This document shows positions 4,311 through 22,524 of a stretch of 50,076 nucleotides of DNA, piece by piece. The notes beneath the pieces are model-generated. The model saw nothing but the letters and a program-made list of their open reading frames with translations. It was not told where the DNA came from and did no database searches. Position numbers and translations under genes: made by a program. This DNA comes from Candidatus Omnitrophota bacterium (lineage in GTDB: Bacteria; Omnitrophota; Gorgyraeia; JAFGHF01), in the NCBI GenBank assembly GCA_016939375.1, contig JAFGHF010000076.1, positions 1-50,076 of the forward strand, read 5' to 3'. How positions within the stretch are numbered: position 1 is the first letter of the stretch; the number at the start of each line of letters is the position of its first letter.

Positions 4311-5171
4311 TCAACGCATCCTCTGATAAAGCTTCTCCCAGATCTGTATTATTTGCTCTTTTGCCCCCTTTGAGGGATATTCTATTATCGTCTTGCCTTC
4401 TACCAAAGCCTTGACCACATCTTCATCGAAAGAAATCTTACCGATAAGCTCAATATTGTTTTTATGGCAATATGACTCTATTTCCTCGCTCATTTGGGTG
4501 TTTAGATCGAACTTATTTACGACTAAAGCAACGGGTACGCTGAAATGCCTGGCCACCTTGATCACCCTATCTGCGTCGTGTAAGCCGGATAAGGTGGGCT
4601 CGGTAACTACCAAAGCACAGTCTATTCCTGAAAGAGAGGCAATCACCGGACAACCAATGCCAGGGGCCCCGTCAATGATCACCCAATCTGCGTCTTCCTT
4701 TTGGGCCAGCTCCTTTGCCTTTTGCCTGACCAAGGCCACCAACTTGCCTGAATTCTCTTCAGCAATGCCCAATTTAGCATGCACGAGGGAACCGAATCTC
4801 GTCCGCGAGATATACCATTCGCCGGCGATATTTTCTTGCATTATCACTGCTTCGGCCGGACAGATAAATTTACAAAAGGCGCAACCTTCGCAGGAAATTG
4901 GATCAACCACAAAATCCTCGCTGATTGCGTTGAAACGGCAGGCAGCGACACATCTTCCGCATTCTTTGCAAAGTTTTTTGTCGATCTTGGCAGTAAACCC
5001 GCTTTTAAATTGATGCCGCTGTTCTATCTCGGGCGAAAGCAAAAGATGTAAGTCTGCTGCATCGACATCGCAGTCGGCCATGACTTTATTTTCTGCCAGA
5101 GCGGCAAAGGCCCCGGTGAGTATGGTCTTTCCCGTGCCACCTTTTCCGCTTATCACCACTATTTGTTTCAC
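4311..5171 (-). CDS. MinD-type P-loop ATPase with inserted ferredoxin domain (second copy)
   Basis: A 286-residue ParA/MinD-superfamily ATPase (COG1149 type). The deviant Walker A is GKGGTGKT (residues 8-15), followed by an inserted 2x[4Fe-4S] ferredoxin domain (CKECGRCVAAC and CEGCAFCKFIC, residues ~70-107) and the switch DGAPGIGCP. Such proteins pair in anaerobes and are thought to act in Fe-S or metal assembly or electron transfer; the exact role is unknown. The start is GTG at 5171, supplied by the right end of the 84-bp element at 5171-5254 (GGAGG 9 bases upstream). Without the insertion the start would be ATG overlapping the stop of the CoA-binding gene. Confidence 0.88.
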   Translation of the reverse strand: MKQIVVISGKGGTGKTILTGAFAALAENKVMADCDVDAADLHLLLSPEIEQRHQFKSGFTAKIDKKLCKECGRCVAACRFNAISEDFVVDPISCEGCAFCKFICPAEAVIMQENIAGEWYISRTRFGSLVHAKLGIAEENSGKLVALVRQKAKELAQKEDADWVIIDGAPGIGCPVIASLSGIDCALVVTEPTLSGLHDADRVIKVARHFSVPVALVVNKFDLNTQMSEEIESYCHKNNIELIGKISFDEDVVKALVEGKTIIEYPSKGAKEQIIQIWEKLYQRMR

Positions 5172-5258
5172 CCCGTTAAACCTCCAATCAGCCTCTCCCC
5201 GCTAAAACATTTATGCACTTTTCGAAGCTGCATAAATACATAGGCTTAACGGGGTTCA
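5167..5258. mobile_element. 84-bp non-autonomous element with TTCA target duplication
   Basis: The element is 5171-5254, flanked by direct TTCA copies (5167-5170 and 5255-5258). Its termini CCCCGTTAAACCT and the inverted CCCCGTTAAGCCT match those of the GIY-YIG element at 16841-17105. On the minus strand the left end opens a 23-codon remnant frame starting MNPVKPMYLC, and the right end retains the GGLTG-stop frame seen in the full element. This suggests an internal-deletion derivative. Its right end supplies GGAGG and the GTG start of the downstream ATPase gene. Confidence 0.8.
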
Positions 5259-5639
5259 TCTAGGACCCATCATTATACAAAGGTTATATACTACAGCAAT
5301 GCCGTTTTCTCTACAGTATTTTACCGCCTCTTCGCTTTGCGCCCCAGGCTGCATCCAGACCCTCTTTATCCCCTTTTCTTTGCACTGCCTGACTATCTTC
5401 TCCGTCGCCTCAGGGGGAGTAACCAGATCAGCGACATCACAGACTACCGGTATGTCTTTTACGCTGGCATAACAAGCGATCCCTTCTACTTCTTTTAAGC
5501 GCGGGTTGACCGGATATACCTCATAGCCCTTTTCTTTCAGGGCCATCAGGATCTTATAGGCGAATTTGTCCTTGTTTCTAAAAGACCCCGCTACGGCAAA
5601 CTTCTTCTGTTTTAGGAATTCTTGCACTAGGTCCTGCAT
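5256..5639 (-). CDS. CoA-binding domain protein (YccU/COG1832 type)
   Basis: A 127-residue Rossmann-fold CoA-binding protein with KKFAVAGSFRN at residues ~12-22, YPVNPRLKEVEG in the middle and the C-terminal VWMQPGAQSEEAV...YNLCIMMGPR, all typical of the family. The ligand is probably a CoA thioester or free CoA; the biological role is not established. It overlaps the upstream ATPase gene by 13 bp. Its stop codon (TGA at 5256-5258) lies within the target duplication of the 84-bp element; before the insertion it would have formed an ATGA overlap with the next start. Confidence 0.88.
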   Translation of the reverse strand: MQDLVQEFLKQKKFAVAGSFRNKDKFAYKILMALKEKGYEVYPVNPRLKEVEGIACYASVKDIPVVCDVADLVTPPEATEKIVRQCKEKGIKRVWMQPGAQSEEAVKYCRENGIAVVYNLCIMMGPR

Positions 5640-6460
5640 CGGACGATATCCTTATATAATTTTTCAAATTTTTCTTTATATTCCGGCAGGGCTCCTACGA
5701 TATTCTCGCCTCTGGAATAGCAAGAAGCTATTTCTTTTTTAAAAGGGATGCGCATCAAAATAGGAACGTTTTCTTTTTGGCAGTAGGCATCGGTTTTTTC
5801 ATCTCCGATATCAGCACGATTGAGCACTAGGCCAAAAGGTATCTTCATCTTTCGCAAGACTTCTACCGCCAGTTTCAAGTCATTGAGGCCAAATGGGGTA
5901 GGCTCGCTTACTAAAATACAGAAGTCAGAACCTTTGATCGATTCGATGACAGGACATGAAGTCCCCGGAGGCGCGTCGATTATTACAGTCCGCGAAGGAT
6001 TGGCATATTGTTTTACAGTCCTGATCAAAGGTGGGGACATCGCCTGGCCGATATTTAGCTGCCCGTGCGCAAATTGAAGGCTATCTTTCTCGCCGATCTC
6101 CACGCAACCTATTTCTTTATCGACTTCTTTTATTGCTTCTTTAGGACAGAAATATGTACACGAGCCACAACCATGGCAGAGCTCGGGAAACACCAATACT
6201 TTATCTTTAATCACCACCAAGGCATTATAAGCGCAGACCTCTTGGCAACGGCCACAAAAGTCACACTTCTCTTTGTCTATCTGGGGTATAGGAATATAGA
6301 CAGGGACCGTATTCTTTATTTCGGGCTTTATAAATAGGTGGGCATTGGGCTCTTCTACGTCACAGTCTAGAAGTTGGACATTAGTTAAAGATAGCGCTAG
6401 ATTGACACTGACTGTAGTCTTGCCTGTGCCGCCTTTTCCGCTGGCAACTGAAATTATCAT
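5627..6460 (-). CDS. MinD-type P-loop ATPase with inserted ferredoxin domain (first copy)
   Basis: A 277-residue paralogue of the ATPase at 4311-5171. Walker A GKGGTGKTT lies at residues 9-17, then the inserted ferredoxin domain with CDFCGRCQEVC and CHGCGSCTYFC, then DAPPGTSCP. The two copies probably work as a pair, each with an ATP-driven switch and two [4Fe-4S] clusters. The gene starts 12 bp after the zinc-ribbon gene and overlaps the CoA-binding gene. Neighbouring NifX-like proteins make a metal/Fe-S trafficking role plausible, but that is inference. Confidence 0.88.
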   Translation of the reverse strand: MIISVASGKGGTGKTTVSVNLALSLTNVQLLDCDVEEPNAHLFIKPEIKNTVPVYIPIPQIDKEKCDFCGRCQEVCAYNALVVIKDKVLVFPELCHGCGSCTYFCPKEAIKEVDKEIGCVEIGEKDSLQFAHGQLNIGQAMSPPLIRTVKQYANPSRTVIIDAPPGTSCPVIESIKGSDFCILVSEPTPFGLNDLKLAVEVLRKMKIPFGLVLNRADIGDEKTDAYCQKENVPILMRIPFKKEIASCYSRGENIVGALPEYKEKFEKLYKDIVRCRT

Positions 6461-11844: not shown

Positions 11845-12087
11845 TTATTCTATGTCGAAGGAAACGACTTCGACTCTTGTGCCGGGGAAAAAGGTCAACT
11901 CCAGCTGCGCGTCTTCCATAATAGTCCCTTTTGCCAGTACGGCAAATGTCTCTTTAAAAGAATCCTCTTTGGAACCGGTAAACTCCCCTACCTTTAATCT
12001 GATCTTAGAGACCTTTTTGGCACCTTCCTTCTGGGCGTGTTCTGAAATACCATCTATTATTGGCTGAATCAAATGCGTCTCATGCAT
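11845..12087 (-). CDS. hypA: HypA-like nickel chaperone lacking the zinc domain
   Basis: An 80-residue protein with the HypA N-terminal metal site MHETHLIQPIIDGI (Met1-His2-Glu3), the KKVSKIRLKVGEFTG strand and AQLELTFFPGTRVEV. Typical HypA is about 115 residues with a CxxC...CxxC zinc domain; here the protein stops (SFDIE) with no cysteine at all. The stop lies about 3 bp before a palindromic repeat, so truncation by repeat insertion is possible. It could still bind nickel at its N-terminus. Confidence 0.85.
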   Translation of the reverse strand: MHETHLIQPIIDGISEHAQKEGAKKVSKIRLKVGEFTGSKEDSFKETFAVLAKGTIMEDAQLELTFFPGTRVEVVSFDIE

Positions 12088-12100
12088 CTCCTATTCCTTT

Positions 12101-12137
12101 CCTGGACACTTCTCCGTTTGGCTCAAGAACCGGTCTT
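12101..12137. repeat. AAGACCGGTTCTTGAG repeat between hycI and hypA
   Basis: On the minus strand AAGACCGGTTCTTGAG, then CCAAACGGAGAAGTGTCC. It overlaps the last bases of the protease gene's stop codon. A near copy of the unit at 11806-11841. Confidence 0.7.
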
Positions 12138-12612
12138 AATGATTTAGGGTTTCTTTTATTTTCTGGCAAATCTGCTCTAAGGCCTGTTCTATTTCATCAG
12201 ACATAGGCTCTCCCAAAGCAATGCTCTTTGGTTCTACTCCCAACATATATATTTTGGCCGGAGTATTCTGCTCCAGATATTCTATAAACATGTGGCAAGA
12301 CGTATCATGTGTACTAAAGCCGCTTTTGACTATCTCATCTTTCTCTAAAATCGCCCATTCTCCGGGGACGGCGCCCAAATGCAGGGCATCGAGAAGCAGT
12401 ATGGTATCGGGCTTTTCTTTGATGATCTTGCCGGTATGATTCTCCGGTGTGCTGGCGGCGTCAATACATACCGCTTTTACTTTCCCCTGCAATCGCTTGA
12501 TTAAAACCGGCCCAAAAGCATCGTCAGCCCGCAATGGGTTTCCGATGCCGATAATAACGACTTTGCCTTTAAGTATCTGAGTTAATCGGTCTTTCATGGA
12601 GTTTGGCATCAT
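12136..12612 (-). CDS. hycI: Hydrogenase maturation endopeptidase (HycI type)
   Basis: A 158-residue protease that trims the C-terminus of the group 4 hydrogenase large subunit after nickel insertion. Family motifs: IIGIGNPLRADDAFGPVL (residues ~19-36; the Asp of DDAFGP is a nickel-sensing ligand), LLLDALHLGAVPGEW and FSTHDTSCHMFIEYL with the second metal-binding His/Asp. Its likely target is the TER-MAV site of the large subunit at 19351-20532. The start could also be Met6. Confidence 0.93.
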   Translation of the reverse strand: MMPNSMKDRLTQILKGKVVIIGIGNPLRADDAFGPVLIKRLQGKVKAVCIDAASTPENHTGKIIKEKPDTILLLDALHLGAVPGEWAILEKDEIVKSGFSTHDTSCHMFIEYLEQNTPAKIYMLGVEPKSIALGEPMSDEIEQALEQICQKIKETLNH

Positions 12613-12622
12613 AAAAACAAAT

Positions 12623-12645
12623 AGAGAGATTGCGCCGATCTCTCT
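12623..12645. repeat. Inverted repeat between NuoI-like and hycI genes
   Basis: Perfect 8-bp arms AGAGAGAT / ATCTCTCT with a 7-base loop, followed by a CTACT/TCTAC-rich tract up to 12670. It may be a processing hairpin or one of the junction repeats; there is no U-run for a terminator. Confidence 0.5.
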
Positions 12646-12670
12646 ACTCTCTACTATTTCTATATACTTT

Positions 12671-13288
12671 CTACTCTTTGGTAGTCAGCGTTGTCTCTCG
12701 CCTGCAGCGGGCACAAAGTATCTTTACCCGGTCCGAGCGCCCCTTATCTTTTAACGCGGATATGATATTTTTATCTATAATACCTAAACTTTTCAGGCGT
12801 GAAAGGTATAAGGTAGGACTGGAATAAGTCAGCTCGCCCAATTTTTCGGAAATCCATTTCAAATGGTCTTTACAGGCAATGGGCTTACCGCATATCTCAC
12901 ATAACTCTAGTTCTTTTTCTATAGTCTCGTATGAGTCGTGTTTTCTGTCGAAAAAGGAAAGCTCCCACTCATTGGAAAGCTTTATCCCTTGATGTTCGGC
13001 GATGCAGGCCGCTTCGCATTGGCCGCAGAAAATACAGGTATCGGTATAATGGATCATGATTCTCCTGGGCACCCCCGAATCATCGACAATGTCTTTATGG
13101 TCGATGGCATTGACCGGACAGATCTGCTCACAAGCTAAACATCCAACGCACTTCTGGTCATTAAACTTAGGCTGGCCCCTGAAGTTTGGATGCGGAGTAT
13201 GTGCAACTTTAGGAAACTTAGACGTATAAGGCCCTACGATTAACGCCTTTATCGCTTCTTTTAACTCTCTTAACTTTGGTATCTTCAT
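12671..13288 (-). CDS. NuoI/MbhN-like 2x[4Fe-4S] hydrogenase subunit
   Basis: A 205-residue electron-transfer subunit of the membrane-bound hydrogenase. Two ferredoxin motifs are present: CVGCLACEQICPVNAI (residues ~42-57) and CIFCGQCEAACIAEH (~86-100). After the second cluster a C-terminal extension (~residues 125-205) carries CEICGKPIAC and CARCRR, two further Cys pairs that could bind zinc or another cluster. It feeds electrons toward the NuoB-like subunit. It lies at the end of the structural genes, before the maturation genes. Confidence 0.92.
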   Translation of the reverse strand: MKIPKLRELKEAIKALIVGPYTSKFPKVAHTPHPNFRGQPKFNDQKCVGCLACEQICPVNAIDHKDIVDDSGVPRRIMIHYTDTCIFCGQCEAACIAEHQGIKLSNEWELSFFDRKHDSYETIEKELELCEICGKPIACKDHLKWISEKLGELTYSSPTLYLSRLKSLGIIDKNIISALKDKGRSDRVKILCARCRRETTLTTKE

Positions 13289-13306
13289 TATTTATTTTCC
13301 ACTTTT

Positions 13307-13340
13307 AACTGTAAACTGAAAACTGTAAACTGAAAACTGT
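13307..13340. repeat. 14-bp tandem repeat at the gene junction
   Basis: AACTGTAAACTGAA repeated 2.4 times, between the MnhG-like stop and the NuoI-like start. One of several low-complexity tracts at junctions in this operon. Confidence 0.75.
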
Positions 13341-13678
13341 CAAGCTTCTCCCTCTTTATCCTCGGCATATTTATCCACTACGCTGCCCTCCCAGAGCTTA
13401 ACGCCTGATCTATGCGCCCCTCTTGCTATAGCATGGGCGGCAACCGGTGAAGTAAGTAATAAAAATATCATACACAAGAGACATTTCATGCCTGCGGCAA
13501 TAAATCCCACCACTAGAAATGTACCAAATAGAATACTGCAAGTACCCAAAGTTACACATTTTGTCGCAGCTTGCAGACGGTTATAAACATCAGGAAGGCG
13601 CACAAGCCCCAGACAACCAAATACATCAAAGGCAAAACCAATAACAATGAATATCAACCCGATAACATCAATAATCAT
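13340..13678 (-). CDS. mnhG: Mrp antiporter subunit G (MnhG/MbhC-like)
   Basis: A 112-residue membrane protein with three TM segments (residues ~3-25, 38-60, 63-85). It carries the MnhG signature GLVRLPDVYNRLQAATKCVTLG and ends in a charged tail. It is part of the sodium/proton antiporter-like module of the hydrogenase (MbhC in Pyrococcus naming). It overlaps mnhF by 4 bp. Confidence 0.93.
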   Translation of the reverse strand: MIIDVIGLIFIVIGFAFDVFGCLGLVRLPDVYNRLQAATKCVTLGTCSILFGTFLVVGFIAAGMKCLLCMIFLLLTSPVAAHAIARGAHRSGVKLWEGSVVDKYAEDKEGEA

Positions 13679-14043
13679 TCCTCAAACCCTTTCCCTTCCA
13701 GATATTTGGAAAGTGCTAGCGTACTGATAAAACTTTGCAAAGCCCAGGCAATCCCTATATCAATGTACCAAGAGCGACCAGTAGAAATTGTCAATATCGC
13801 GCAAAGGCCAACAATCATAATACCCAATATATCCACGGCCACGATCCTGTCAGCGCTGGTAGGGCCTTTCCAGATCCGGTATAGGCACATCACGCAGGCA
13901 AGTAATATTATATATAGCGCCCGGCCCACAAATCCCACATAAGGAAGCTTATGGTAAAATAAAAACGGCAGCGGCCTAAAAACGATAAAAGCTACTATCG
14001 CTACTATTATTACCGCCCCTATCAACCATCTGATATTTTTCAT
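13675..14043 (-). CDS. mnhF: Mrp antiporter subunit F (MnhF/MbhB-like)
   Basis: A 122-residue protein with an extra N-terminal TM segment, then the MnhF core: RIWKGPTSADRIVAVDILG (residues ~57-75) and two more TM segments. ATG at 14043 has AGGA 8 bases upstream; the TTG six codons earlier, which overlaps mnhE, is less likely. Part of the ion-pumping module. Confidence 0.92.
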   Translation of the reverse strand: MKNIRWLIGAVIIVAIVAFIVFRPLPFLFYHKLPYVGFVGRALYIILLACVMCLYRIWKGPTSADRIVAVDILGIMIVGLCAILTISTGRSWYIDIGIAWALQSFISTLALSKYLEGKGFEE

Positions 14044-14053
14044 CTTACTTTTC

Positions 14054-14551
14054 CTATTCAAATACTTTTCTCAATATTCCCTCGAAGCGTTCCACGATCT
14101 GGGCTGTAGCCTTATCAATGTCCTTGGCCCGCACGTCTATCCAGTGCACATATAAGATGCCGTTGTCTCTGTCGATATCTACGCTTAATGTGCCCGGTGT
14201 AAGCGTAATCGAATTGGCCAGGAATGTCAGTGCCGTATCTGTCTGCAATGTGGTCTTTACTTTTACTATGCCCGGCTTTATGGGTAGGTCCGGATGGATC
14301 ACGCGATAGGCCACATCTATATTGGCTTTAAGACACTCCCACAAAAATACGGGTATGTAGTGCATGACGAAATACCAGTAACGCTTTGGGTGCTTTAAGA
14401 CATGCGGGCGCTGAATAAAAAGGTCGCCGGTCATATAGGCCACAAAAGCGGCTATAAAGATACCGGTCAACGAATGTTGCCAGTCCGGAGGCCAGTTTAA
14501 AAGCAACCAGGCCACAAAACCCAAAGCGAATAAGATCATTTTTGATTTCAC
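14054..14551 (-). CDS. mnhE: Mrp antiporter subunit E (MnhE/MbhA-like)
   Basis: A 165-residue subunit with two or three N-terminal TM helices and a soluble C-terminal domain. SITLTPGTLSVDID is the MnhE signature; LLNWPPDWQHSLTG and ECLKANIDVAYRVI also fit. The GTG start overlaps the mnhD stop (GTGA) and has GAGG 8 bases upstream. Confidence 0.93.
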   Translation of the reverse strand: MKSKMILFALGFVAWLLLNWPPDWQHSLTGIFIAAFVAYMTGDLFIQRPHVLKHPKRYWYFVMHYIPVFLWECLKANIDVAYRVIHPDLPIKPGIVKVKTTLQTDTALTFLANSITLTPGTLSVDIDRDNGILYVHWIDVRAKDIDKATAQIVERFEGILRKVFE

Positions 14552-16056
14552 TGGCTTATCCTCTGCAATATAATACTCGCATACTCAGTGCCTTCTGAAA
14601 GCACATTCGCTGCCTGTTCTAAAAATATCTGATTAAACTGAGGTAGGCACAAAAGTCCTCCTAACACACAAAGCAGGGCCAAAAATGCCATAGAAAGCCG
14701 CATCAACATCGGCACCTCTTTTATCTGACTCCAGCGTTCGCGCAACTGGCCAAAAAAGGCGTATTTCATCACCTTCATAAAAGAGGCCAGGGTCAAAAGG
14801 CTGGCCAATACAGCCCAAAAAGCAAAACCATACCTTCCCGCCTGCACCGCAGCCAGGATGATTATCAGCTTACTCCAAAACCCGTTAAACGGCGGGATAC
14901 CGGCAATAGACATCGAAGCGGTCAGGCAGGTACCGCTGGTAAAGGGCATCCTCTTGGCCAGGCCGCCCATTTTTTTCAGGTCACGTGTGCCTGTTGAGTA
15001 CTCCACTGCCCCTGAGTTTAAAAAGAGCAATGACTTAAACAACGAATGGTTTAATAGATGGAAAAGCCCGCCTAAAATCCCTAAAGGTGTACCCAGCCCT
15101 ATCCCTAAGACCACGTAACCTATCTGGCTTATAGAATGATAGGCCAAAAGGCGCTTGAAATCCCACTGTCCGATCGCCAGGCAAACTCCGATGACCATGG
15201 AAAGTACTCCTAAAGACATCAATATCGAGGAGATCTCAGGCGTCAGCCCGATAATGCTGAAAAATATCCTCACCAAAGCATAGACCCCCAAAGATTTTAT
15301 CAAGACTCCGGAAAGCATCGCTGATATAGGCGCTGGAGCCGAAGGGTGTGCATCCGGCAGCCAGGCGTGAAAAGGCACCAACGCCGCTTTTAAGCCGAAG
15401 CCCATGATGAAGAGTACGCTGATCATCAATACGATATTACCTGTACCTTTTTCCAGCAATACGCCGGCTATATCGGCCATATTCAGAGAGGATGTATAGG
15501 AATATAGAAATACTATTGCCAAAAGGATAAATAATGAACCTACTGTGCTCATCACCGCATATTTGAAAGCGGCTTCCAACTCCTGGCGCTCGGTGCCAAA
15601 GGCTACCAAGGCATAGCTGGCCACAGAGGCAATCTCCAAAAAGACAAACATATTGAATATATCGCCGCTGATGACTACGCCGTTCATACCCGCCAGCATC
15701 AAGAGAAAAAGCGTGTAAAACTTCCATTTGGAGGTAAACTTCTCCATATAATCTATGGCAAAAACTGCTATAGCGAAAGCGACTAGATTTACGGTGACCA
15801 GCATAAAAGCGGTCAAACCGTCTAAAACCATAGCGATACCGATGGGGGGCTTCCAGGCGCCGATACTGGAAACCAGCACGCCGCTTACGTTGACAGTCCT
15901 CACCGCGACAAGAGAAAGCACAAGTACGCAAAATGTGGTCAGGCTGCCCATTAAATCGGGAAATGCCTTTATTTTTTTGCCGGCGATGGAAACCAAAAAG
16001 GCACCGGCCAAAGGCAGGACCACGAAAAGCGGTAAGGAAGTACTTTGTAAGATCAT
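14548..16056 (-). CDS. mnhD: Proton-conducting antiporter subunit D (MnhD/MbhH, NuoN-like)
   Basis: A 502-residue polytopic ion-translocating subunit with about 14 TM helices. The catalytic TM5 glutamate is present (FVFLEIASVASY, E141), as is the TM7 lysine in GLKAALVPFHAWLPDAHPSAP (K223). QWDFKRLLAYHSISQIGY carries the TM8-9 residues. It is the sodium/proton-moving partner of the hydrogenase and overlaps both neighbours by 4 bp. Confidence 0.95.
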   Translation of the reverse strand: MILQSTSLPLFVVLPLAGAFLVSIAGKKIKAFPDLMGSLTTFCVLVLSLVAVRTVNVSGVLVSSIGAWKPPIGIAMVLDGLTAFMLVTVNLVAFAIAVFAIDYMEKFTSKWKFYTLFLLMLAGMNGVVISGDIFNMFVFLEIASVASYALVAFGTERQELEAAFKYAVMSTVGSLFILLAIVFLYSYTSSLNMADIAGVLLEKGTGNIVLMISVLFIMGFGLKAALVPFHAWLPDAHPSAPAPISAMLSGVLIKSLGVYALVRIFFSIIGLTPEISSILMSLGVLSMVIGVCLAIGQWDFKRLLAYHSISQIGYVVLGIGLGTPLGILGGLFHLLNHSLFKSLLFLNSGAVEYSTGTRDLKKMGGLAKRMPFTSGTCLTASMSIAGIPPFNGFWSKLIIILAAVQAGRYGFAFWAVLASLLTLASFMKVMKYAFFGQLRERWSQIKEVPMLMRLSMAFLALLCVLGGLLCLPQFNQIFLEQAANVLSEGTEYASIILQRISQ

Positions 16057-16391
16057 CCTCTTAGTTCCCTAATCTTAGTAATGTCGAACGTGCCGTACTT
16101 ATCATAGATACGCATAGCCAGGGCTATTAAAAGTGCGGTGGTAGCCAGGCCGATCACTATTGCGGTGAGCACTACCGCCTGGGGAAGCGCATCTACCATA
16201 TTCTCGATTTGAGACTCAGGCGAGAAGACCGGCGAACGTCCTTCCATGCGATAGGCCACCAGGACAAAAAACATGTTTACCGCATATTCCGAGATTATTA
16301 CGCCCACAATGATTTTGATGATGTTTCTTTTGCGCAATATGCAATATATGCCTATACTAAAAAGCAAAAGGCAAAGCAAATATACTAACAT
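16053..16391 (-). CDS. mnhC: Mrp antiporter subunit C (MnhC/MbhG, NuoK-like)
   Basis: A 112-residue three-TM subunit. IIVGVIISEYAVNMFFV carries the membrane glutamate, and DALPQAVVLTAIVIGLATTAL is the MnhC signature. It abuts mnhB and overlaps mnhD by 4 bp. Confidence 0.95.
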   Translation of the reverse strand: MLVYLLCLLLFSIGIYCILRKRNIIKIIVGVIISEYAVNMFFVLVAYRMEGRSPVFSPESQIENMVDALPQAVVLTAIVIGLATTALLIALAMRIYDKYGTFDITKIRELRG

Positions 16392-16841
16392 TTATTTCTT
16401 CTCCGATTCGAATTTTAACAATACCAAGGCCACGAATATCGCGAAAAGCCCAGCGCCCACTTTTAAGCTTATGGCGATGTTATAAAGCGGGATCACACCA
16501 GCGCTGAAGAGCTTAAAAGGCTCGCCCTTGGATAAAAAGTTCAAAAAGAAATAGCCGCCGGTAAATCCCAAAAGGGCGATAGCCAAAAACATTATTGCGC
16601 CCATGCTTTCGAAAAAGGAACTGGCCTGTTTGGGCAGCTTGCTCAAAGCCACTTCCTTGCCATAGGCCAGCATCAGGTGCACAAAAGAAAGCGCGATAAT
16701 CACCCCTCCGGCAAAACCGCCGCCGGGAGAGACGTGGCCGTGGGAGACTATGTAAATGCCATATAGCAGGATCAGACCCACAGTCAAGCGGGTGATAGTC
16801 TTAACGATTAAAGACATGCCCTGTTCGTGTTCTTTACTCAC
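16392..16841 (-). CDS. mnhB: Mrp antiporter subunit B (MnhB/MbhF-like)
   Basis: A 149-residue membrane subunit with four TM helices. GHVSPGGGFAGGVIIALS is the MnhB signature. The GTG start at 16841 and its GGAGG come from the right end of the GIY-YIG element. Without the element the start would be ATG in GATGAGTAAAG, overlapping the stop of the MbhDE gene. The protein itself is intact. Confidence 0.94.
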   Translation of the reverse strand: MSKEHEQGMSLIVKTITRLTVGLILLYGIYIVSHGHVSPGGGFAGGVIIALSFVHLMLAYGKEVALSKLPKQASSFFESMGAIMFLAIALLGFTGGYFFLNFLSKGEPFKLFSAGVIPLYNIAISLKVGAGLFAIFVALVLLKFESEKK

Positions 16842-17109
16842 CCCGTTAGACCTCCTTTTAATCTATTTTTAATATATCTTTTACCCATACCCGTCTTTAG
16901 GTACCTTTCTCTACGAAAAGCATCGTCTTTATTCAAACAAGCTTCGAAATATATTAGATGCAATGGACGCTTGCATTTCGTTGAGGTAACGTGCCCGTTA
17001 TTATGCTCTTCTATTCTACTTTTAATATTTGCTGTAGCGCCTGTATAAAACTCGGTGTTTTTATCGCTTCTTAAAACATACGTATAATACCAGGGTCTAA
17101 CGGGGCTCA
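16837..17109. mobile_element. 265-bp GIY-YIG element with CTCA target duplication
   Basis: The element is 16841-17105 with perfect 12-bp inverted termini CCCCGTTAGACC / GGTCTAACGGGG. Direct CTCA copies flank it (16837-16840 and 17106-17109). It is inserted between MbhDE and mnhB exactly where an ATGAGTAA start/stop overlap would otherwise be. It carries one gene, a GIY-YIG nuclease, and no transposase. It shares termini with the 84-bp element at 5171-5254. Confidence 0.85.
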
Positions 17110-17110
17110 T
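16838..17110 (-). CDS. Small GIY-YIG (URI-domain) nuclease of a mobile element
   Basis: A 90-residue single-domain GIY-YIG nuclease (COG2827 type). WYYTYVLRSDKNTEFYTGAT matches the GIY and YIG strands, with YTG in place of YIG. R32 (IKSRIEEHNNG) and E62 (LKxxE-like, YFEACLN region) are in the catalytic positions, followed by the typical RRERYLKTGMGKRYIKNRLKGG end. Its ATG lies in the target-site copy, so it borrowed the start codon of the interrupted gene. Its TGA stop overlaps the new GTG start of mnhB. It has no role in the hydrogenase. Confidence 0.9.
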   Translation of the reverse strand: MSPVRPWYYTYVLRSDKNTEFYTGATANIKSRIEEHNNGHVTSTKCKRPLHLIYFEACLNKDDAFRRERYLKTGMGKRYIKNRLKGGLTG

Positions 17111-17651
17111 CTTCGTCCCTTACTTTTTCGCCTACTTTTTTCCTGCCGATACGCCGCACTATCGCCAATACACCTATAACGGCCGTAAATAAGACCGTGG
17201 CCTCACCTAATGTATCGTAAGCGCGGTAATCCAAGATGACCGAGGCTACTATATTGGCGGCGCCGGTCTTTTCAAAACCTTCCTTTAAATAAGTACTGGC
17301 CACTTTCATCGTGGGATAACCAAACTCGGGAAGGTCCTTAAAACATTTCGCCGCTACCATCAAAAACAGCGAGATAAAGATCACAGTAATCAAAGTATTT
17401 AAAAACCATCTGCCGGAAGTCGAAAATGGCAGATCCTTTCTTAAAGTAGCCCTGATCAAGATTATCAAACACAATATCTCGACCACCAACTGGGTAATCG
17501 CCACATCCGGGGCCTTGAGCACTAAAAAAGCAATAGATAAAGCCAGGCCTACCGCACCCACAGCTACTACCGAAGAAAGCAGGTCTTTGATCTCCACCGC
17601 CACAACGGCGGCCACGATCATGAATATAAGCAGGATGTAAAGTTCGAGCAT
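17097..17651 (-). CDS. MbhD/MbhE fusion (MnhA C-terminal domains)
   Basis: A 184-residue membrane protein joining the MbhD-like part (residues ~1-70, EIKDLLSSVVAVGAVGLALSI and KAPDVAITQLVVE) with an MbhE-like part (residues ~80-175, ending ILDYRAYDTLGEATVLFTAVIGV). Together these match the C-terminal domains of MnhA. The C-terminus EPR-stop uses the first bases of the GIY-YIG element; the ancestral end would be two residues shorter. Confidence 0.92.
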   Translation of the reverse strand: MLELYILLIFMIVAAVVAVEIKDLLSSVVAVGAVGLALSIAFLVLKAPDVAITQLVVEILCLIILIRATLRKDLPFSTSGRWFLNTLITVIFISLFLMVAAKCFKDLPEFGYPTMKVASTYLKEGFEKTGAANIVASVILDYRAYDTLGEATVLFTAVIGVLAIVRRIGRKKVGEKVRDEDEPR

Positions 17652-17652
17652 T

Positions 17653-17704
17653 TTACAGTTATCAGTTTTCAGTTATCAGCTATCAGCAGCTAAAGGCTGA
17701 TGGC
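17653..17704. repeat. Low-complexity micro-repeat at the MbhDE/NuoL-like junction
   Basis: Built from CAGTTATCAGTTTTCAGTTA and CAGCTATCAGCAGC units followed by GGCTGATGGCT. Short quasi-palindromic units; nothing coding is seen. Confidence 0.6.
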
Positions 17705-19357
17705 TCATTTAAGTAAAATATAAAACAAAACGCCCATGCCTAAAAGGCACCAGGCCAAATAGGTAGGCAATACACCATTGTGCAGATAACGCAATATACT
17801 GTTAAAGCCAAAAGTAATCCGCGAACCTACTTCGTAGGGGTCGAACAGCTTCCTCTTGGCCAGGTCATATATCCATTTTAATATACCGATGTCGCTGATG
17901 GTATTATAAAATTCGGTCCCCGACAACCTCATATCCGGGTGGTCCTTAAATATTTCTCCGCCCATGAATATTTCCGCTTCTTTTGTGTCCGAGGCCTTGC
18001 CCCATAAATAGATCAATATCCCTATTATGATCCCGACCAATATCAAGGCTGTAGCGATATTGGCGTTCCAGATCCCGGAAAAAACGACGTTCTCATTTAG
18101 GCTGGGCAAGATAAACATCTTCAAAGGCAGCCGATAGGCAAAAACACCGAAAAGTATGCACAAGCCGGCCAGAAAAACCTGAGGAATCCACATCAGCGGG
18201 CTTTCCTCGCGCACATCATGTACGGTAAAGCGGGATTCCTTAGACTGCTGTCCTAAAAATACCGCATGCACTAACTTCATAAAGCTGGCTAATGTCAGGG
18301 CGCTGCCAAAAAGCGCGGCCACAAGCCAAACTACCCAGAGATAGCCTCCTTTTTTGCCCAGATCTATGACGCCTTGATATATCATCCATTTTGAGGCAAA
18401 GCCGTTAAACGGCGGAACGCCGGATATCGCAAAGGAAGCGATTAAAAAGGTGACGAAGGTAATCGGCATGATCTTGGCAAAACCGCCTAATTTATCCAGC
18501 TCTGTAGTCTGCGCTTTCTTCTCCACCGAACCACCGGAGAGAAATAGGCAGGATTTATATATGGCGTGATTAAGCATATGAAAAAGTCCCCCGGCAATAC
18601 CGATAGGATTGCCGGTACCGATGCCCAATACCATATAGCCCACCTGGCTTACGGCGTGATAACCCAGCAGTCTTTTTAAGTCGTGCTGGACTAAAGCCAT
18701 CATTACCGCGGCCACGATAGTAAAACTGCCTATAGCCATCAAAAAGGTATTCATGGCTGCGTCCATCGCGAACATATTTAAGGAAAGTCTGGCTAAAAAG
18801 TATATTCCCAGAAGTTTATCCAGCGACGCTGGCAGATACGCTGTCACCGGAGAGGGCGCGTCTTCAGCAGTATCAGGAATCCATGTATGAAGAGGCATCG
18901 CCCCGGCCTTAGCAAAGGCCCCGCAAGCCAGGCAAAGGTAGGCCCATACCGCGGGCCTGGAATTAAGGGCGATATTTATCTTATCCATCTGCAAAGTGCC
19001 GCTTAACTTCCAAATAAAAGCAATGCCCAAAAGCATAAACGCATCGGTCCCGCCAATGATGATAAAAGCCTTCTTGGCCGTGGCTGAAGTACGGTCCTTC
19101 TCGCCGAAACCAATCAATAAGTATAGCAGTAAGCCCAAAAACCCCCAGCAGAGGATAAACAGCACCAGATTATTGGCGAAAACCACGCCTAAAGAAGTTA
19201 TTAAGGTAAGTAATATATATAAATAATAACGCAGCTGGCCTCTTTTCTGGCGCATGAAGCTGACAGAATAAAGGCAAATCACCACGGTAAAAATAACGGC
19301 GAATAAGCCTACAAAGCTGGAAAGACTGTCAAATCTAAAATAAGCGGGATTTAACAT
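17705..19357 (-). CDS. NuoL/MnhA-like antiporter subunit lacking the TM5 glutamate
   Basis: A 550-residue polytopic subunit of the NuoL/HyfB-like group with about 14 TM helices and a C-terminal lateral-helix-like extension (EAEIFMGGEIFKDHPDMRL then further TM). The TM7 lysine is present (GAFAKAGAMPLHTWIPDT, K150), as is HDLKRLLGYHAVSQVGY. The usual TM5 glutamate of WEGVGL-type motifs is glycine here (CWGFLGLLLYLLIGF, G72). Ion pumping by this subunit may therefore be altered. It overlaps the large-subunit gene by 7 bp. Confidence 0.92.
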   Translation of the reverse strand: MLNPAYFRFDSLSSFVGLFAVIFTVVICLYSVSFMRQKRGQLRYYLYILLTLITSLGVVFANNLVLFILCWGFLGLLLYLLIGFGEKDRTSATAKKAFIIIGGTDAFMLLGIAFIWKLSGTLQMDKINIALNSRPAVWAYLCLACGAFAKAGAMPLHTWIPDTAEDAPSPVTAYLPASLDKLLGIYFLARLSLNMFAMDAAMNTFLMAIGSFTIVAAVMMALVQHDLKRLLGYHAVSQVGYMVLGIGTGNPIGIAGGLFHMLNHAIYKSCLFLSGGSVEKKAQTTELDKLGGFAKIMPITFVTFLIASFAISGVPPFNGFASKWMIYQGVIDLGKKGGYLWVVWLVAALFGSALTLASFMKLVHAVFLGQQSKESRFTVHDVREESPLMWIPQVFLAGLCILFGVFAYRLPLKMFILPSLNENVVFSGIWNANIATALILVGIIIGILIYLWGKASDTKEAEIFMGGEIFKDHPDMRLSGTEFYNTISDIGILKWIYDLAKRKLFDPYEVGSRITFGFNSILRYLHNGVLPTYLAWCLLGMGVLFYILLK

Positions 19358-20532
19358 TTATATTTCTCTCTCAATCTCTCGGTCTTGCGCTGGGAAAGCT
19401 TTATTAGATCCTCACCGTTGTAGAGTTTTTTGCCCTTTGTATTGCGCACCGCCATCCTCTCTGTGCAGCAATAACAAGGATCTATTGCCGCTAAGATTAT
19501 GGTCGCATCGGATACGGTCTCACCCACGACTGTCGCCTTATATGTAGGCAGGTTCATAAATGTAGGGGCACGTACCTTATGGCGTACGGGCCTATTGGTG
19601 CCATCGCTTCTTACATAATGGAATGTCTCACCTCGCGGCGCCTCAATATGTCCGATGCCTTCTCCGGGTGGTATATCCTTGATATTCAAGTCTATCTCGC
19701 CAACGGGAAGATTCTGCAGGCACTGGCGCATTATCTTAACAGCCTCCAACACCTCTAATATGCGTACCACTACTTTATCAAAGACGTCTCCGTTCTCAGT
19801 GACTATCATCTCCCACTCTACTTTATCGTAGGCACCATAGGGAGAATCCCTGCGTACATCACGGGCAACGCCTGAGGCCCGGGAAGTAGGGCCCAGGGCT
19901 GAGAAATTAATCGCCTCTTCCTTTGAAAGAACTCCTATTCCCTTGGTGCGGGCGTGCAGCACAGGGTCATCCGCGATGGCCTTAAGCAACATCTCCAGCG
20001 TAGGCACGATGGAGTTTATCTTCTTTAATACATCTGGTATATCTTCTGCTTTGATGTCCCGCCTTACTCCGCCGGGCTTAAACATCGCGTAATTGTTCCT
20101 GTTGCCGGACAATATCTCCATGGCATCCAATATCTCTTCCCTTAGTTTCCAAACCCACATATATACCGTATTATATCCCAAGAAATGTCCGGCCAGCCCC
20201 AGCCATAAAAGATGCGAATGGATCCTTTCGCCTTCGGCAATAATGGTACGGATATATTTTGCCCTCTCAGGGACTTCCACGGGGATGACATCTTCTACCG
20301 CCCGGGTATAGGCAAAGGGATGGCTGGTCGAGCATATACCGCAGATCCTTTCGATTACAAAAGTAGACTGGTCAAAGGTCTTCATCTCGGAAAGCTTCTC
20401 TATACCCCTATGGTTATACCCTACCCTTACATCTATATCCACGACCTTCTCACCCTCAACGGTGAGCATAAAGAATTCCGGCTCTTCCTGAAGCGGATGA
20501 TACGGTCCTATGGGAACTATCGTTTTAGCCAT
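19351..20532 (-). CDS. Group 4 [NiFe] hydrogenase large (catalytic) subunit
   Basis: A 393-residue NuoD-like subunit holding the [NiFe] site. The L1 motif RICGICSTSH gives C64, C67 and H71; the L2 motif DPCYCCTER gives C353 and C356. All four metal cysteines are present, so this is a hydrogenase and not a complex I homologue. The tail after TER (R359) resembles the HycE propeptide, with cleavage expected between R359 and M360 by the HycI protease encoded downstream. EGERIHSHLLWLGLAGHFLG and GIGHIEAPRGETFHYV are also typical. It is membrane associated through the NuoH-like subunit. Confidence 0.97.
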   Translation of the reverse strand: MAKTIVPIGPYHPLQEEPEFFMLTVEGEKVVDIDVRVGYNHRGIEKLSEMKTFDQSTFVIERICGICSTSHPFAYTRAVEDVIPVEVPERAKYIRTIIAEGERIHSHLLWLGLAGHFLGYNTVYMWVWKLREEILDAMEILSGNRNNYAMFKPGGVRRDIKAEDIPDVLKKINSIVPTLEMLLKAIADDPVLHARTKGIGVLSKEEAINFSALGPTSRASGVARDVRRDSPYGAYDKVEWEMIVTENGDVFDKVVVRILEVLEAVKIMRQCLQNLPVGEIDLNIKDIPPGEGIGHIEAPRGETFHYVRSDGTNRPVRHKVRAPTFMNLPTYKATVVGETVSDATIILAAIDPCYCCTERMAVRNTKGKKLYNGEDLIKLSQRKTERLREKYKC

Positions 20533-20539
20533 GCTACAT

Positions 20540-20598
20540 CCTCATTAATTAAAAACTAAAAATCAATTTTGAATTTTGAATTCTAAATTTTAAATTTC
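20540..20598. repeat. A/T-rich micro-repeat upstream of the large-subunit gene
   Basis: Units AAAAACTAAAAATCAA and TTTTGAATTTTGAATTC, then TAAATTTTAAATTT. Low-complexity junction tract; no coding signal seen. Confidence 0.6.
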
Positions 20599-21072
20599 CT
20601 ATACTCCCCTATCTCTGATAGCGTCTTTATCCCACTCTTTATAATCGCAACGCAAGGGGTATACGCCTTCGGGCCATTCATCCGAAAGCAATAGCCTCCT
20701 CATATCAGGATGGCCTTTAAATTTTATACCCAAAAGCTCGTGCATCTCGCGCTCTATCCAATTGGCGCCCTCAAAGCTGTGGGCCAGCGAGTCTATTTGT
20801 GGGTTCTCCCGAGGCAACCTTACGCGCAACGAGATTAACAAGTTGATATCCTCGATAGTGAAATGATACAGGATCTCTATGTGGTGTCTGATGTCTACGC
20901 CTGAGGCGATATTAAAACGCGCGCCTAAATCGTAAAAAATATAGTTGGCTATTTTTACTAGCGACTCGGGCTTGATCTCGATATATACCCTTTTATCGGA
21001 TTTATCGAATACCTCGACTATATCCGCCTTAAATCTTTCTTTTAGGTCTTTTAATACGCTTTCTCTTGTCAT
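20599..21072 (-). CDS. NuoC/MbhK-like hydrogenase subunit (30-kDa type)
   Basis: A 157-residue soluble subunit of the complex I 30-kDa family: GARFNIASGVDIR in the middle, then AHSFEGANWIEREMHELLGIKFKGHPDMRRLLL, the family signature, and WPEGVYPLRCDY. It docks on the NuoB- and NuoD-like subunits. Complex I fuses or adjoins these genes in the same order. Confidence 0.93.
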   Translation of the reverse strand: MTRESVLKDLKERFKADIVEVFDKSDKRVYIEIKPESLVKIANYIFYDLGARFNIASGVDIRHHIEILYHFTIEDINLLISLRVRLPRENPQIDSLAHSFEGANWIEREMHELLGIKFKGHPDMRRLLLSDEWPEGVYPLRCDYKEWDKDAIRDRGV

Positions 21073-21103
21073 TTTAGAGCTCTCAGTTTTCAGCCTAAAG
21101 TCG
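21073..21103. repeat. Short micro-repeat tract between NuoB- and NuoC-like genes
   Basis: Contains GAGCTCTCAGTTTTCAGCC, of the same style as 17653-17704. Confidence 0.4.
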
Positions 21104-21556
21104 CTATTTGGCTTTCTTTGTCTTCTCGCTCAGTTTGTCTTTCTTTACCTTTTCGATCAACTTGACTACGCCGGCGATTATTGCCTCCGGCTTGGGAGGA
21201 CAACCGGGTATATATACATCTACGGGAATTATTTTGTCCAGCGGCAGCGGACAATTATAACTATGAATAAACATGCCCCTGGATAAAGAACACTCCCCTA
21301 CGGCTACCACCAGGCACGGCTTGGGCATCTGTTCATAAAGCCTTTTCAGCCTGATTACCGACTGTCGATTGCAAGAGCCGGTGACTAAAAGCACATCGGC
21401 GTGTTTTATGCTTCCGGCCAAAAGCATGCCAAACCTCTCAATGTCAAAACGGGGCGTCAGGCAGTCCAGTATCTCTATATCACAGTTATTGCAGCTACCT
21501 GTAGATAAGTGGAATACCCACGGAGATTTTAATAATGCCTTTAATTTTAAACTCAT
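21104..21556 (-). CDS. NuoB/MbhJ-like hydrogenase small subunit
   Basis: A 150-residue small subunit with the proximal [4Fe-4S] cluster. Ligands are C22 and C25 (GSCNNCDIE), C89 (GEC) and C119 (GCPPKP). It passes electrons to the [NiFe] subunit. VTGSCNRQSVIRLKRLYEQMP is characteristic of group 4 enzymes. It ends with a Lys-rich tail. Confidence 0.95.
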   Translation of the reverse strand: MSLKLKALLKSPWVFHLSTGSCNNCDIEILDCLTPRFDIERFGMLLAGSIKHADVLLVTGSCNRQSVIRLKRLYEQMPKPCLVVAVGECSLSRGMFIHSYNCPLPLDKIIPVDVYIPGCPPKPEAIIAGVVKLIEKVKKDKLSEKTKKAK

Positions 21557-21612
21557 TTTCTTCTCTGCCTTCAGCTTTCAGCCTTCAGCCGCTGATGGCT
21601 GACAGCTGATAG
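21557..21612. repeat. CAGC-rich micro-repeat between NuoH- and NuoB-like genes
   Basis: GCCTTCAGCTTTCAGCCTTC followed by GCTGATGGCTGACAGCTGATAGC. Same family style as the tract read inside the hypF-like gene. Confidence 0.65.
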
Positions 21613-22524
21613 CTACCTTCCTGTCAATGCTAATGCCACTGCTAGAGCTGCTAAAAAAGTCATCGGGCCCCAGAAAAATCTCACTGCCTGGTCTATCCTT
21701 ACCCTGGGGTTGGTATTTCTTATTACTGTAACCAAGGCTACCAGGCCGACATACTTGACTATGCTAATAGCGTCAAAATGCAGTCCGCCCATAAAAATTA
21801 TTATCAAAAAGAAAGGTAAAATAAACAAAAGCATGTTCTTCATCAATTTATAAAGGGCCAGTCCGGGCCCGGAATATTCTACTAAAGGCCCGGAGACTAT
21901 CTCTGTCTCCGCTTCCGGGATATCAAAAGGGACCAGGCCTAATTTTGCCTGAATACAAAAGATAGCTACGATTAAGGCTAATACACCGGAGAGACCTGTG
22001 GCAACAGCACCATTTTGCAATTGATAGCCGAGTATAGTCGCCAGCCTTAGACTAAATCCGGATTTTATTACCGGGACCAACACAGCCAGCACAAAGGGCA
22101 GCTCATAGCTTAAGATCAGCTTCATCTCCCGGGAAGCCCCCAGGCTGGCTAAAGGATTTCGGGAGGCGAAACCACCCATTATTATACTTATAGAAGGTAT
22201 AGTCAATAGATATATGACTACCACTAAATCGCCCAGATAAGTATGCGCGGAAGTTATATTATTGACCCACAAAATAGTCGACACTAAAATAGCGCTGGCA
22301 AAACCCACTACGGGAGCCATCAGAAATGTCGATTTGGATGCCCCTTTAGGAATAAGGGTCTCCTTGCCTAAAAGCTTGATGATGTCGATCAGAGGCTGCA
22401 GGATCGGAGGGCCCACCCGGTATTGCACCCTGGCGGTGACCTTGCGGTCTATCCAGCTGGTCAAAAGCCCGATGGCCACAGTCAAGAGAAATCCGTAGGT
22501 TATAAAATAAAGTACGTATATCAT
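21613..22524 (-). CDS. NuoH/MbhM-like membrane subunit
   Basis: A 303-residue subunit with eight TM helices that anchors the hydrogenase arm and links it to the ion pumps. RKVTARVQYRVGPPILQPLIDIIKL (residues ~27-51), FDIPEAETEIVSGPLVEYSG and the end FFWGPMTFLAALA are the expected motifs, with the conserved glutamates of the E-channel region. It overlaps the polyferredoxin gene by 4 bp. Confidence 0.95.
   Translation of the reverse strand: MIYVLYFITYGFLLTVAIGLLTSWIDRKVTARVQYRVGPPILQPLIDIIKLLGKETLIPKGASKSTFLMAPVVGFASAILVSTILWVNNITSAHTYLGDLVVVIYLLTIPSISIIMGGFASRNPLASLGASREMKLILSYELPFVLAVLVPVIKSGFSLRLATILGYQLQNGAVATGLSGVLALIVAIFCIQAKLGLVPFDIPEAETEIVSGPLVEYSGPGLALYKLMKNMLLFILPFFLIIIFMGGLHFDAISIVKYVGLVALVTVIRNTNPRVRIDQAVRFFWGPMTFLAALAVALALTGR

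What the first reader, a model, noticed from the sequence alone, without database searches (positions are those of the whole stretch)
16837..17109. A GIY-YIG mobile element that inserts exactly at a stop/start overlap and rebuilds both genes
The 265-bp element has perfect 12-bp inverted termini (CCCCGTTAGACC) and a 4-bp CTCA duplication. Removing it and one CTCA copy restores GATGAGTAAAG, where the ATG of mnhB overlaps the stop of the MbhDE gene. With the element in place, the MbhDE stop becomes TAG in the left terminus. The nuclease gene takes over the original ATG, its own TGA overlaps a new GTG that starts mnhB, and its C-terminal GGLTG codons double as the mnhB ribosome site (GGAGG). The element thus threads itself into an operon and keeps every junction coupled, with only a 90-residue nuclease and no transposase.
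Basis: partly seen in the sequence, partly recalled or inferred. Interest (0 to 1): 0.93.

Follow-up and report, generated by a model that had tools for sequence, protein, structure and literature searches.

The report
Nuclease-only transposon that borrows start codons
A 265-base DNA element whose only gene encodes a small cutting enzyme, predicted to be what moves it, sits exactly on a gene's start codon: its own gene begins with that codon and its end supplies a GTG start and a likely replacement ribosome site, and copies with the same ends lie in many bacterial phyla.

Summary
Observation confirmed. Window 16841-17105 is a 265-bp insertion with perfect 12-bp inverted ends and a CTCA duplication, inside an ATGAG stop/start overlap; two same-family relatives carry the uninterrupted junction. 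Short copies have 4-bp duplications (49 of 92; 7.5 in shuffles); target consensus TNNA. End subtype and nuclease lineage track each other on a tree. In the GACC end-subtype the nuclease has no Met of its own before the domain: 104 of the 120 best homologues begin MxPV[RK], i.e. host ATG plus left terminus. In genome G018, 25 of 41 duplicated insertions lie on ATGAR, with a Shine-Dalgarno-like motif on the gene side in 20 of 25 and on the far side in 1. Other copies sit in prepilin genes and rebuild LTG-FTLxE. That the nuclease moves the element is inferred; an unseen transposase is the main rival. Against: only 25 of 82 full copies keep an exact duplication, and a TTCA/TAAA flank combination (17 of 82) is unexplained.

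The parts
16841..17105 (-). full-length element, 265 bp, nuclease orientation
   Evidence: perfect TIR, duplication, empty site in relatives
16841..16852 (+). terminal inverted repeat, gene-side (mnhB) end
   Evidence: CCCCGTTAGACC
17094..17105 (-). terminal inverted repeat, left end in nuclease orientation; encodes PVRP of the nuclease and the TAG that ends MbhDE
16837..16840 (.). target duplication CTCA (TGAG on gene strand), copy 1
17106..17109 (.). target duplication CTCA, copy 2
16838..17110 (-). GIY-YIG nuclease ORF, 90 aa; ATG 17108-17110 is the original mnhB start codon
   Evidence: Pfam PF01541 E=2.1e-14; fold model pLDDT 88.6, nearest SLX1 and UPF0213
16851..16855 (-). GGAGG, likely replacement Shine-Dalgarno motif
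   Evidence: read directly; such a motif on the gene side at 27 of 44 ATGAR insertions
16839..16841 (-). new GTG start of mnhB; G from the element, TG from the duplication
16392..16841 (-). mnhB-like gene downstream (PF04039)
17097..17651 (-). MbhD/MbhE gene upstream, now ending DEPR* through the element
5171..5254 (-). second copy without nuclease (84 bp, CCCCGTTAAACC / CCCCGTTAAGCC), TTCA duplications at 5167-5170 and 5255-5258
5181..5185 (-). GGAGG of the second copy, 9 nt before GTG 5169-5171 of ORF 4311-5171

Best explanation
The 265-bp segment is one copy of a transposon-like family with 12-14-bp inverted ends and 4-bp TNNA target duplications whose only gene, a 90-residue GIY-YIG nuclease, is predicted to be the enzyme that moves it and its short copies. 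Shown by sequence: ends, duplications, empty site, linked descent of ends and nuclease, and what each junction does to the reading frames. On an ATGAR start codon the left terminus puts the nuclease in frame with the host ATG (MNPVRP/MSPVRP), the upstream gene ends in the target or at the TAG of CCCCGTTAG, and the right terminus brings GGAGG plus a G that turns TGAR into GTGAR in the host frame. On the TTTA (once TTCA) of a prepilin motif the same terminus reads LTG, giving LTG-FTLxE. Inferred: the nuclease, nearest in fold to the structure-specific nuclease SLX1, recognises the paired ends, cuts at the GGGG/TNNA boundaries and makes a 4-nt staggered cut in a TNNA target, and host repair fills and joins, leaving the duplication. 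Inferred too: translation of the host gene is kept, so insertions in needed genes survive.
For: Ends linked to nuclease: 82 of 123 distinct end-pairs of 241-301 bp contain it (6 flagged broken), and 24 of the 41 others contain further termini. With columns outside the core left out, end family A needs 4 changes on the 166-row nuclease tree (55.8 in shuffles; many of its rows were collected by their ends); within the 81 family-A rows, subtypes GAT (16 rows, 99/96) and GACC (5 rows, 99/97) are each one clade, GAG and GAA are not (10 and 11 changes). Mobility: exact 4-bp repeat in 49 of 92 short pairs (shuffled 7.5, max 16; 5-bp in 1, 6-bp in 0), 25 of 82 full copies (4.6, max 11), 41 of 51 pairs in G018 (8.3, max 16) and 10 of 18 in G000 (1.8, max 7); consensus T-N-N-A, 0.88 at either end, over 95 sites; variable positions 11-13 of the ends agree within a copy in 222, 215 and 194 of 231 (shuffled 68, 116, 115); empty sites. 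Short pairs occur in 10 of 11 class genomes with a full-size end-pair (the eleventh, G153, has no nuclease in its pair) and in 58 of 373 without (p=1.6e-7). Selection: 26 of 26 pairs with dS 0.05-1.2 have dN/dS below 0.5, median 0.30 (not independent); Y9, Y11, Y22, G24, E68 invariant in 43 sequences. Capture and give-back: 104 of 120 best homologues begin MxPV[RK], 112 end LTG; 44 of 143 duplicated pairs lie on ATGAR, with a Shine-Dalgarno-like motif on the gene side in 27 of 44, on the far side in 1 of 44, at other sites (either end) in 13 of 99; 20 of 41 have an upstream frame of 45 or more codons ending in the ATGA itself, against 19 of 158 roughly called ATGAR starts; LTG-F(S/T/A)xxE across the junction in 15 of 297 pairs.
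Against: No movement was observed. Only 25 of 82 full copies have an exact 4-bp repeat; 17 of 82 have TTCA left / TAAA right, which is not a duplication. 58 class genomes have short pairs but no exact full-size pair. Most G018 short copies share only the ends with a full element (4 of 37 with 10 or more of 15 matches just inside the ends). In the window's genome most short copies carry other end subtypes (mostly GAAA) than the nuclease copy. In G018 the Shine-Dalgarno-like motif is also found at 7 of 16 other sites, either end. GIY-YIG enzymes hydrolyse DNA; none is known to me to do strand transfer (recalled). Gene callers favour ORFs with an ATG, which inflates the 104 of 120.
Confidence: 0.68

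Rival explanations
1. The ends are those of an ordinary transposon whose transposase acts in trans; the GIY-YIG gene is a passenger that was captured by, and then inherited with, the ends.
For: TIR plus fixed-length duplication are marks of DDE-type transposition (established knowledge); 58 of 373 class genomes without an exact full-size pair have short pairs.
Against: Nuclease lineage and end subtype descend together across phyla (phyla from record titles); purifying selection on the nuclease. In G018, 94 of the 100 listed exact termini form 47 pairs spanning only 28-116 bp (68 more termini not listed; of the six left over, one, C62:27947, shows no partner in the 421 bp fetched). End-pairs longer than about 310 bp were not searched, so a larger transposase-bearing copy is not excluded.
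Confidence: 0.22
2. A free-standing homing endonuclease gene that spreads by cutting an empty allele and being copied in by recombination with the same locus.
For: GIY-YIG is a classical homing fold (recalled; I-TevI appears at rank 22 of the fold search, E 1.2).
Against: Copies sit at many unrelated loci with TIR and 4-bp duplications, often without the nuclease; no Rfam match, so no known intron family, in the window.
Confidence: 0.06
3. A domesticated regulatory cassette: the hairpin ends and small ORF serve operon translation and no longer move.
For: Junctions keep the reading frames coupled; start-codon sites dominate in G018.
Against: Related short copies also at other sites, neighbouring copies sharing one 4-bp repeat, absence at the orthologous junction of same-family relatives.
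Confidence: 0.04

Closest known systems
GIY-YIG-encoding, non-intron insertions in rRNA genes of CPR bacteria (PMC11270868; passages seen)
   Same: GIY-YIG proteins in insertions that match no intron, in Patescibacteria; [quoted passage not shown]
   Different: No inverted repeats are mentioned in that text (0 hits); in the passages seen no TIR, duplication, short partner copies or start-codon targeting; said to be sparse
IS elements with MITE derivatives
   Same: TIR, fixed-length duplication, one gene, short copies without it
   Different: No DDE, HUH, serine or tyrosine transposase domain in the element's gene; a GIY-YIG nuclease instead
Penelope-like retroelements with GIY-YIG endonuclease (PMC3846280; passages seen)
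   Same: GIY-YIG enzyme in integration, with short target duplications
   Different: Reverse transcriptase present there, none here; eukaryotic
Tsy transposon with accessory GIY-YIG nuclease (PMC10293859; passages seen)
   Same: GIY-YIG nuclease encoded in a bacterial transposon; its removal lowered transposition
   Different: Tyrosine recombinases are the movers and the nuclease is not essential; no inverted repeats detected by the authors
REPIN/RAYT systems (recalled)
   Same: Short palindromic copies plus one small mobilising protein
   Different: RAYT is a Y1 HUH enzyme; no target duplication
UPF0213 / SLX1 GIY-YIG proteins
   Same: Nearest solved relatives by sequence and fold
   Different: SLX1 is a repair nuclease (recalled); neither is bounded by TIR as far as known to me

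Membership tests
GIY-YIG nuclease superfamily | GIY-YIG domain with conserved Tyr, Arg, Glu | tested here: met
   PF01541 54 bits; invariant Y9, Y11, Y22, G24, E68 and nearly invariant R32, H36 in 43 sequences (43 of the 65 intact ones listed); E68 as metal ligand is recalled
DNA transposon / insertion sequence | terminal inverted repeats | tested here: met
DNA transposon / insertion sequence | fixed-length target duplication | tested here: met
   4 bp; (exact in only 25 of 82 full copies)
DNA transposon / insertion sequence | a known transposase (DDE, HUH, serine, tyrosine) | tested here: not met
   the element's gene matches only GIY-YIG and T5orf172 in Pfam
MITE | short TIR copies with duplications and an autonomous partner with the same ends | tested here: inconclusive
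   short copies and duplications met; a full-size end-pair is present in 10 of the 68 class genomes with short pairs; autonomy of the partner untested
Homing endonuclease element | insertion in one cognate site without TIR or duplication | tested here: not met
   many unrelated sites, TIR, 4-bp duplications
Group I/II intron | catalytic intron RNA around the ORF | tested here: not met
   no Rfam match at gathering score in the window
REPIN/RAYT | Y1 HUH transposase | tested here: not met
   for the element's own gene; not searched genome-wide
Penelope-like element | reverse transcriptase | tested here: not met
   no second ORF of 60 aa or more on the gene strand within the element
Any transposon | observed movement | not testable with these tools
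   needs a bench assay

The most novel reading that the evidence does not exclude
A new class of autonomous DNA transposon in which a single GIY-YIG nuclease replaces the transposase, and whose ends have evolved into translation parts: they take over the host gene's start codon for the nuclease and give back a Shine-Dalgarno and GTG, letting it live inside operons and essential-looking genes; a second lineage with other ends (CCCAGCCCC / CCCCGCACC) has the same design.
Probability: 0.6. Interest if true: 0.93.

Novelty: categorically new. Interest (0 to 1): 0.88.

Why it matters
If the inference holds, transposition with TIR and duplications does not require any known transposase chemistry, and an autonomous transposon can be as small as about 265 bp. 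It would bear on what a 2006 survey of the superfamily left open, whether further GIY-YIG proteins act as molecular parasites (PMC1564403, passage seen). It also gives a case where transposon ends appear tuned so that insertion on a start codon or a prepilin signal is tolerated, and it may explain many genes named 'GIY-YIG nuclease family protein' in uncultured bacteria. It would be testable at once in a laboratory E. coli strain.

Tried and rejected
Homing, intron and REPIN readings were rejected as in the membership table. A model in which the donor's own TNNA overhang sets the target (restriction-and-ligation) was dropped because one short-copy length class in G018 (67 bp) sits in TGAG, TTTA, TGAA and TGGA duplications. 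The TTCA/TAAA flank combination could not be explained; in L178 the interrupted integrase-like codons (recognised by eye) suggest a changed left copy of TAAA, unproven. A scan of viral contigs found no exact full element (0). One search used a pattern with one N too many (2 hits) and was replaced; the ORF regex failed (0 of 91) and was replaced; one search stopped on an error and was replaced; the end-subtype labels were too short and were redone. Literature: ten searches showed no description of this element in their listings; the library lacks most subscription papers and all bioRxiv preprints. Papers were seen as listings, and as passages for six; none was read whole.

Full report
Observation. 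Removing the element and one CTCA gives a junction that aligns without gap to L047 and L051, two same-family relatives, in ATGAGTAAAGA; a third, L049, reads ATGAGTAGAGA. The window holds a second copy, 5171-5254, with TTCA duplications and the same layout; its upstream gene ends in the TGA of ATGA and its downstream gene starts GTGAAACAA, where four of nine relatives' loci (L363, L364, L366, L367) start ATGAAACAA or ATGAAACAG.

How common. In 384 genomes of the class, an exact end-pair of 241-301 bp occurs in 11 (reversed control pattern: 1 genome) and one of 35-65 bp in 68 (no control hit seen in the table). Nuclease-bearing pairs there come from records named Omnitrophota, Patescibacteria groups, Bacteroidetes, Deltaproteobacteria, Thermodesulfovibrionia, Planctomycetes, Cloacimonadota, Elusimicrobia and Chlorobiota; an Aenigmatarchaeota record (L111) has ends but no nuclease. 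Over there are 123 distinct pairs; 82 contain the nuclease by tblastn at 1e-4 (6 flagged broken, some others shortened), 41 do not, and 24 of these 41 contain further termini, as two neighbouring short copies would. The search itself was a DNA pattern with no protein in it.

Duplications. Short pairs: 49 of 92 have an exact 4-bp direct repeat, shuffled mean 7.5, maximum 16; five bases agree in 1, six in none. Full copies: 25 of 82 (4.6, maximum 11), and 17 of 82 have TTCA/TAAA, which I cannot explain. G018: 41 of 51 pairs (8.3, maximum 16); G000: 10 of 18 (1.8, maximum 7) (G018 pairs from the termini listed, 100 of 168, plus the full copy). Over 95 sites with the repeat (of 210 pairs) the consensus is TNNA with a weak outer G and C. 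The ends are about 13 bp: positions 11-13 differ between copies but agree within a copy (222, 215 and 194 of 231), position 14 less so (102; shuffled 67), so the two ends of a copy belong together. Some neighbouring copies share a single 4-bp spacer.

Nuclease and ends descend together. With columns outside the core taken out, end family A needs 4 changes on a 166-row nuclease tree (shuffled mean 55.8); many of its rows were collected by their ends, so the contrast is with rows found by protein similarity. Within family A (81 rows), the GAT subtype (16 rows) and the GACC subtype (5 rows) are each one clade (99/96 and 99/97; bootstrap not settled), while GAG and GAA are mixed (10 and 11 changes). 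The 26 pairs with dS between 0.05 and 1.2 all have dN/dS below 0.5. Model: pLDDT 88.6; nearest solved folds SLX1 and UPF0213 BH0048; invariant residues continue into the C-terminal part (D63, E68, L71, K72, G76, R78, R83).

Start-codon capture and give-back. In the GACC subtype no Met precedes the domain; the ORF starts on the host ATG. The six nuclease copies of this subtype that I hold (window, L006, L007, L008, L146, L202) all lie on ATGAA or ATGAG in the sense direction; L113 is a GACC pair on ATGAA without nuclease. Of the 120 best homologues (of 1459 found) 104 begin MxPV[RK], with N in 80 and S in 22, and 112 end in LTG; calling bias towards ATG must be kept in mind. Short copies do the same: in G018 25 of 41 duplicated insertions lie on ATGAR, and a Shine-Dalgarno-like motif stands on the gene side in 20 of 25, on the far side in 1 of 25, and at either end of 7 of 16 other sites. 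Over all loci held then: 44 of 143; 27 of 44 against 1 of 44; 13 of 99 other sites. In 39 of 44 the GTG frame stays open to the end of the 90 nt read. Some host genes look important by their first residues (L313 like adenylosuccinate synthetase, L323 like TsaB, L244 like TruB; recognised by eye, not by a search). In 33 of 41 testable cases an upstream frame of 45 codons or more ends within -12 to +15 of the ATG, in 20 at the ATGA itself; the rough background is 57 and 19 of 158 (background starts were called by a simple rule and are noisy). A second tolerated target is the prepilin motif: 15 of 297 pairs read LTGF(S/T/A)xxE across the junction, 12 with the duplication.

Beyond this family. Of 91 GIY-YIG loci recovered from stretches found by protein similarity (the better-scoring part), 25 have inverted repeats of 13 bp or more around the gene (shuffled mean 0.66, maximum 3) and 15 have direct repeats of 15 bp or more (0.46, maximum 2). 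A distinct set of ends, CCCAGCCCC, CCCCGCCCTT or CCCCGCACC, shows 10 of 17 pairs with 4-bp duplications, all ten TGAA or TTCA, with ATGAR on the left in 5 of 17 pairs and a GTG after the element in those.

Verdict. The anatomy is shown; that the GIY-YIG enzyme is the mover is the best inference and would be a new kind of transposon. The rival, a hidden transposase, is not excluded: pairs longer than about 310 bp were not searched.

Noticed in passing
L019, L023, L255, L265, L271, L277: Second lineage of GIY-YIG elements with other ends (CCCAGCCCCTCC, CCCCGCCCTTCC, CCCCGCACCTTC), TGAA/TTCA duplications, several on start codons, with a GTG after the element.
   Followed up: partly
L029, L031, L268, L273, L276, L281: Third kind: GIY-YIG genes inside AATTTGA-CCC...GGG-TTTAA(T/C)T inverted repeats; in L029 and L031 the flanks look like larger hairpins by eye.
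   Followed up: no
L020, L022, L028, L030, L033: GIY-YIG genes beside tRNA-like sequence (by eye) with direct repeats of 18-28 bp on both sides, as if inserting in tRNA genes.
   Followed up: no
L040, L010, L110, L130, L231, L353 and others: Copies in type IV prepilin-like genes that recreate LTG-FTLxE; in full copies such as L164, L130 and L042 the nuclease frame runs on into the pilin.
   Followed up: partly
L108, L117, L122, L144, L171 and others: TTCA left and TAAA right flanks in 17 of 82 full copies, often with TAAATG downstream; not a duplication.
   Followed up: partly
L312, L320, L332, L335, L344 (G018): Neighbouring copies separated by exactly one shared 4-bp target repeat.
   Followed up: partly
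window 11845-22524: Gene set resembling a membrane-bound hydrogenase/Mrp antiporter operon (MbhDE, MnhB, antiporter-like and hydrogenase-like subunits), host of the element; five proteins tested with Pfam, the rest by eye.
   Followed up: no
window 4311-6460: Two P-loop ATPase-like genes with ferredoxin-like motifs on either side of a short gene, next to the second copy of the element (by eye).
   Followed up: no
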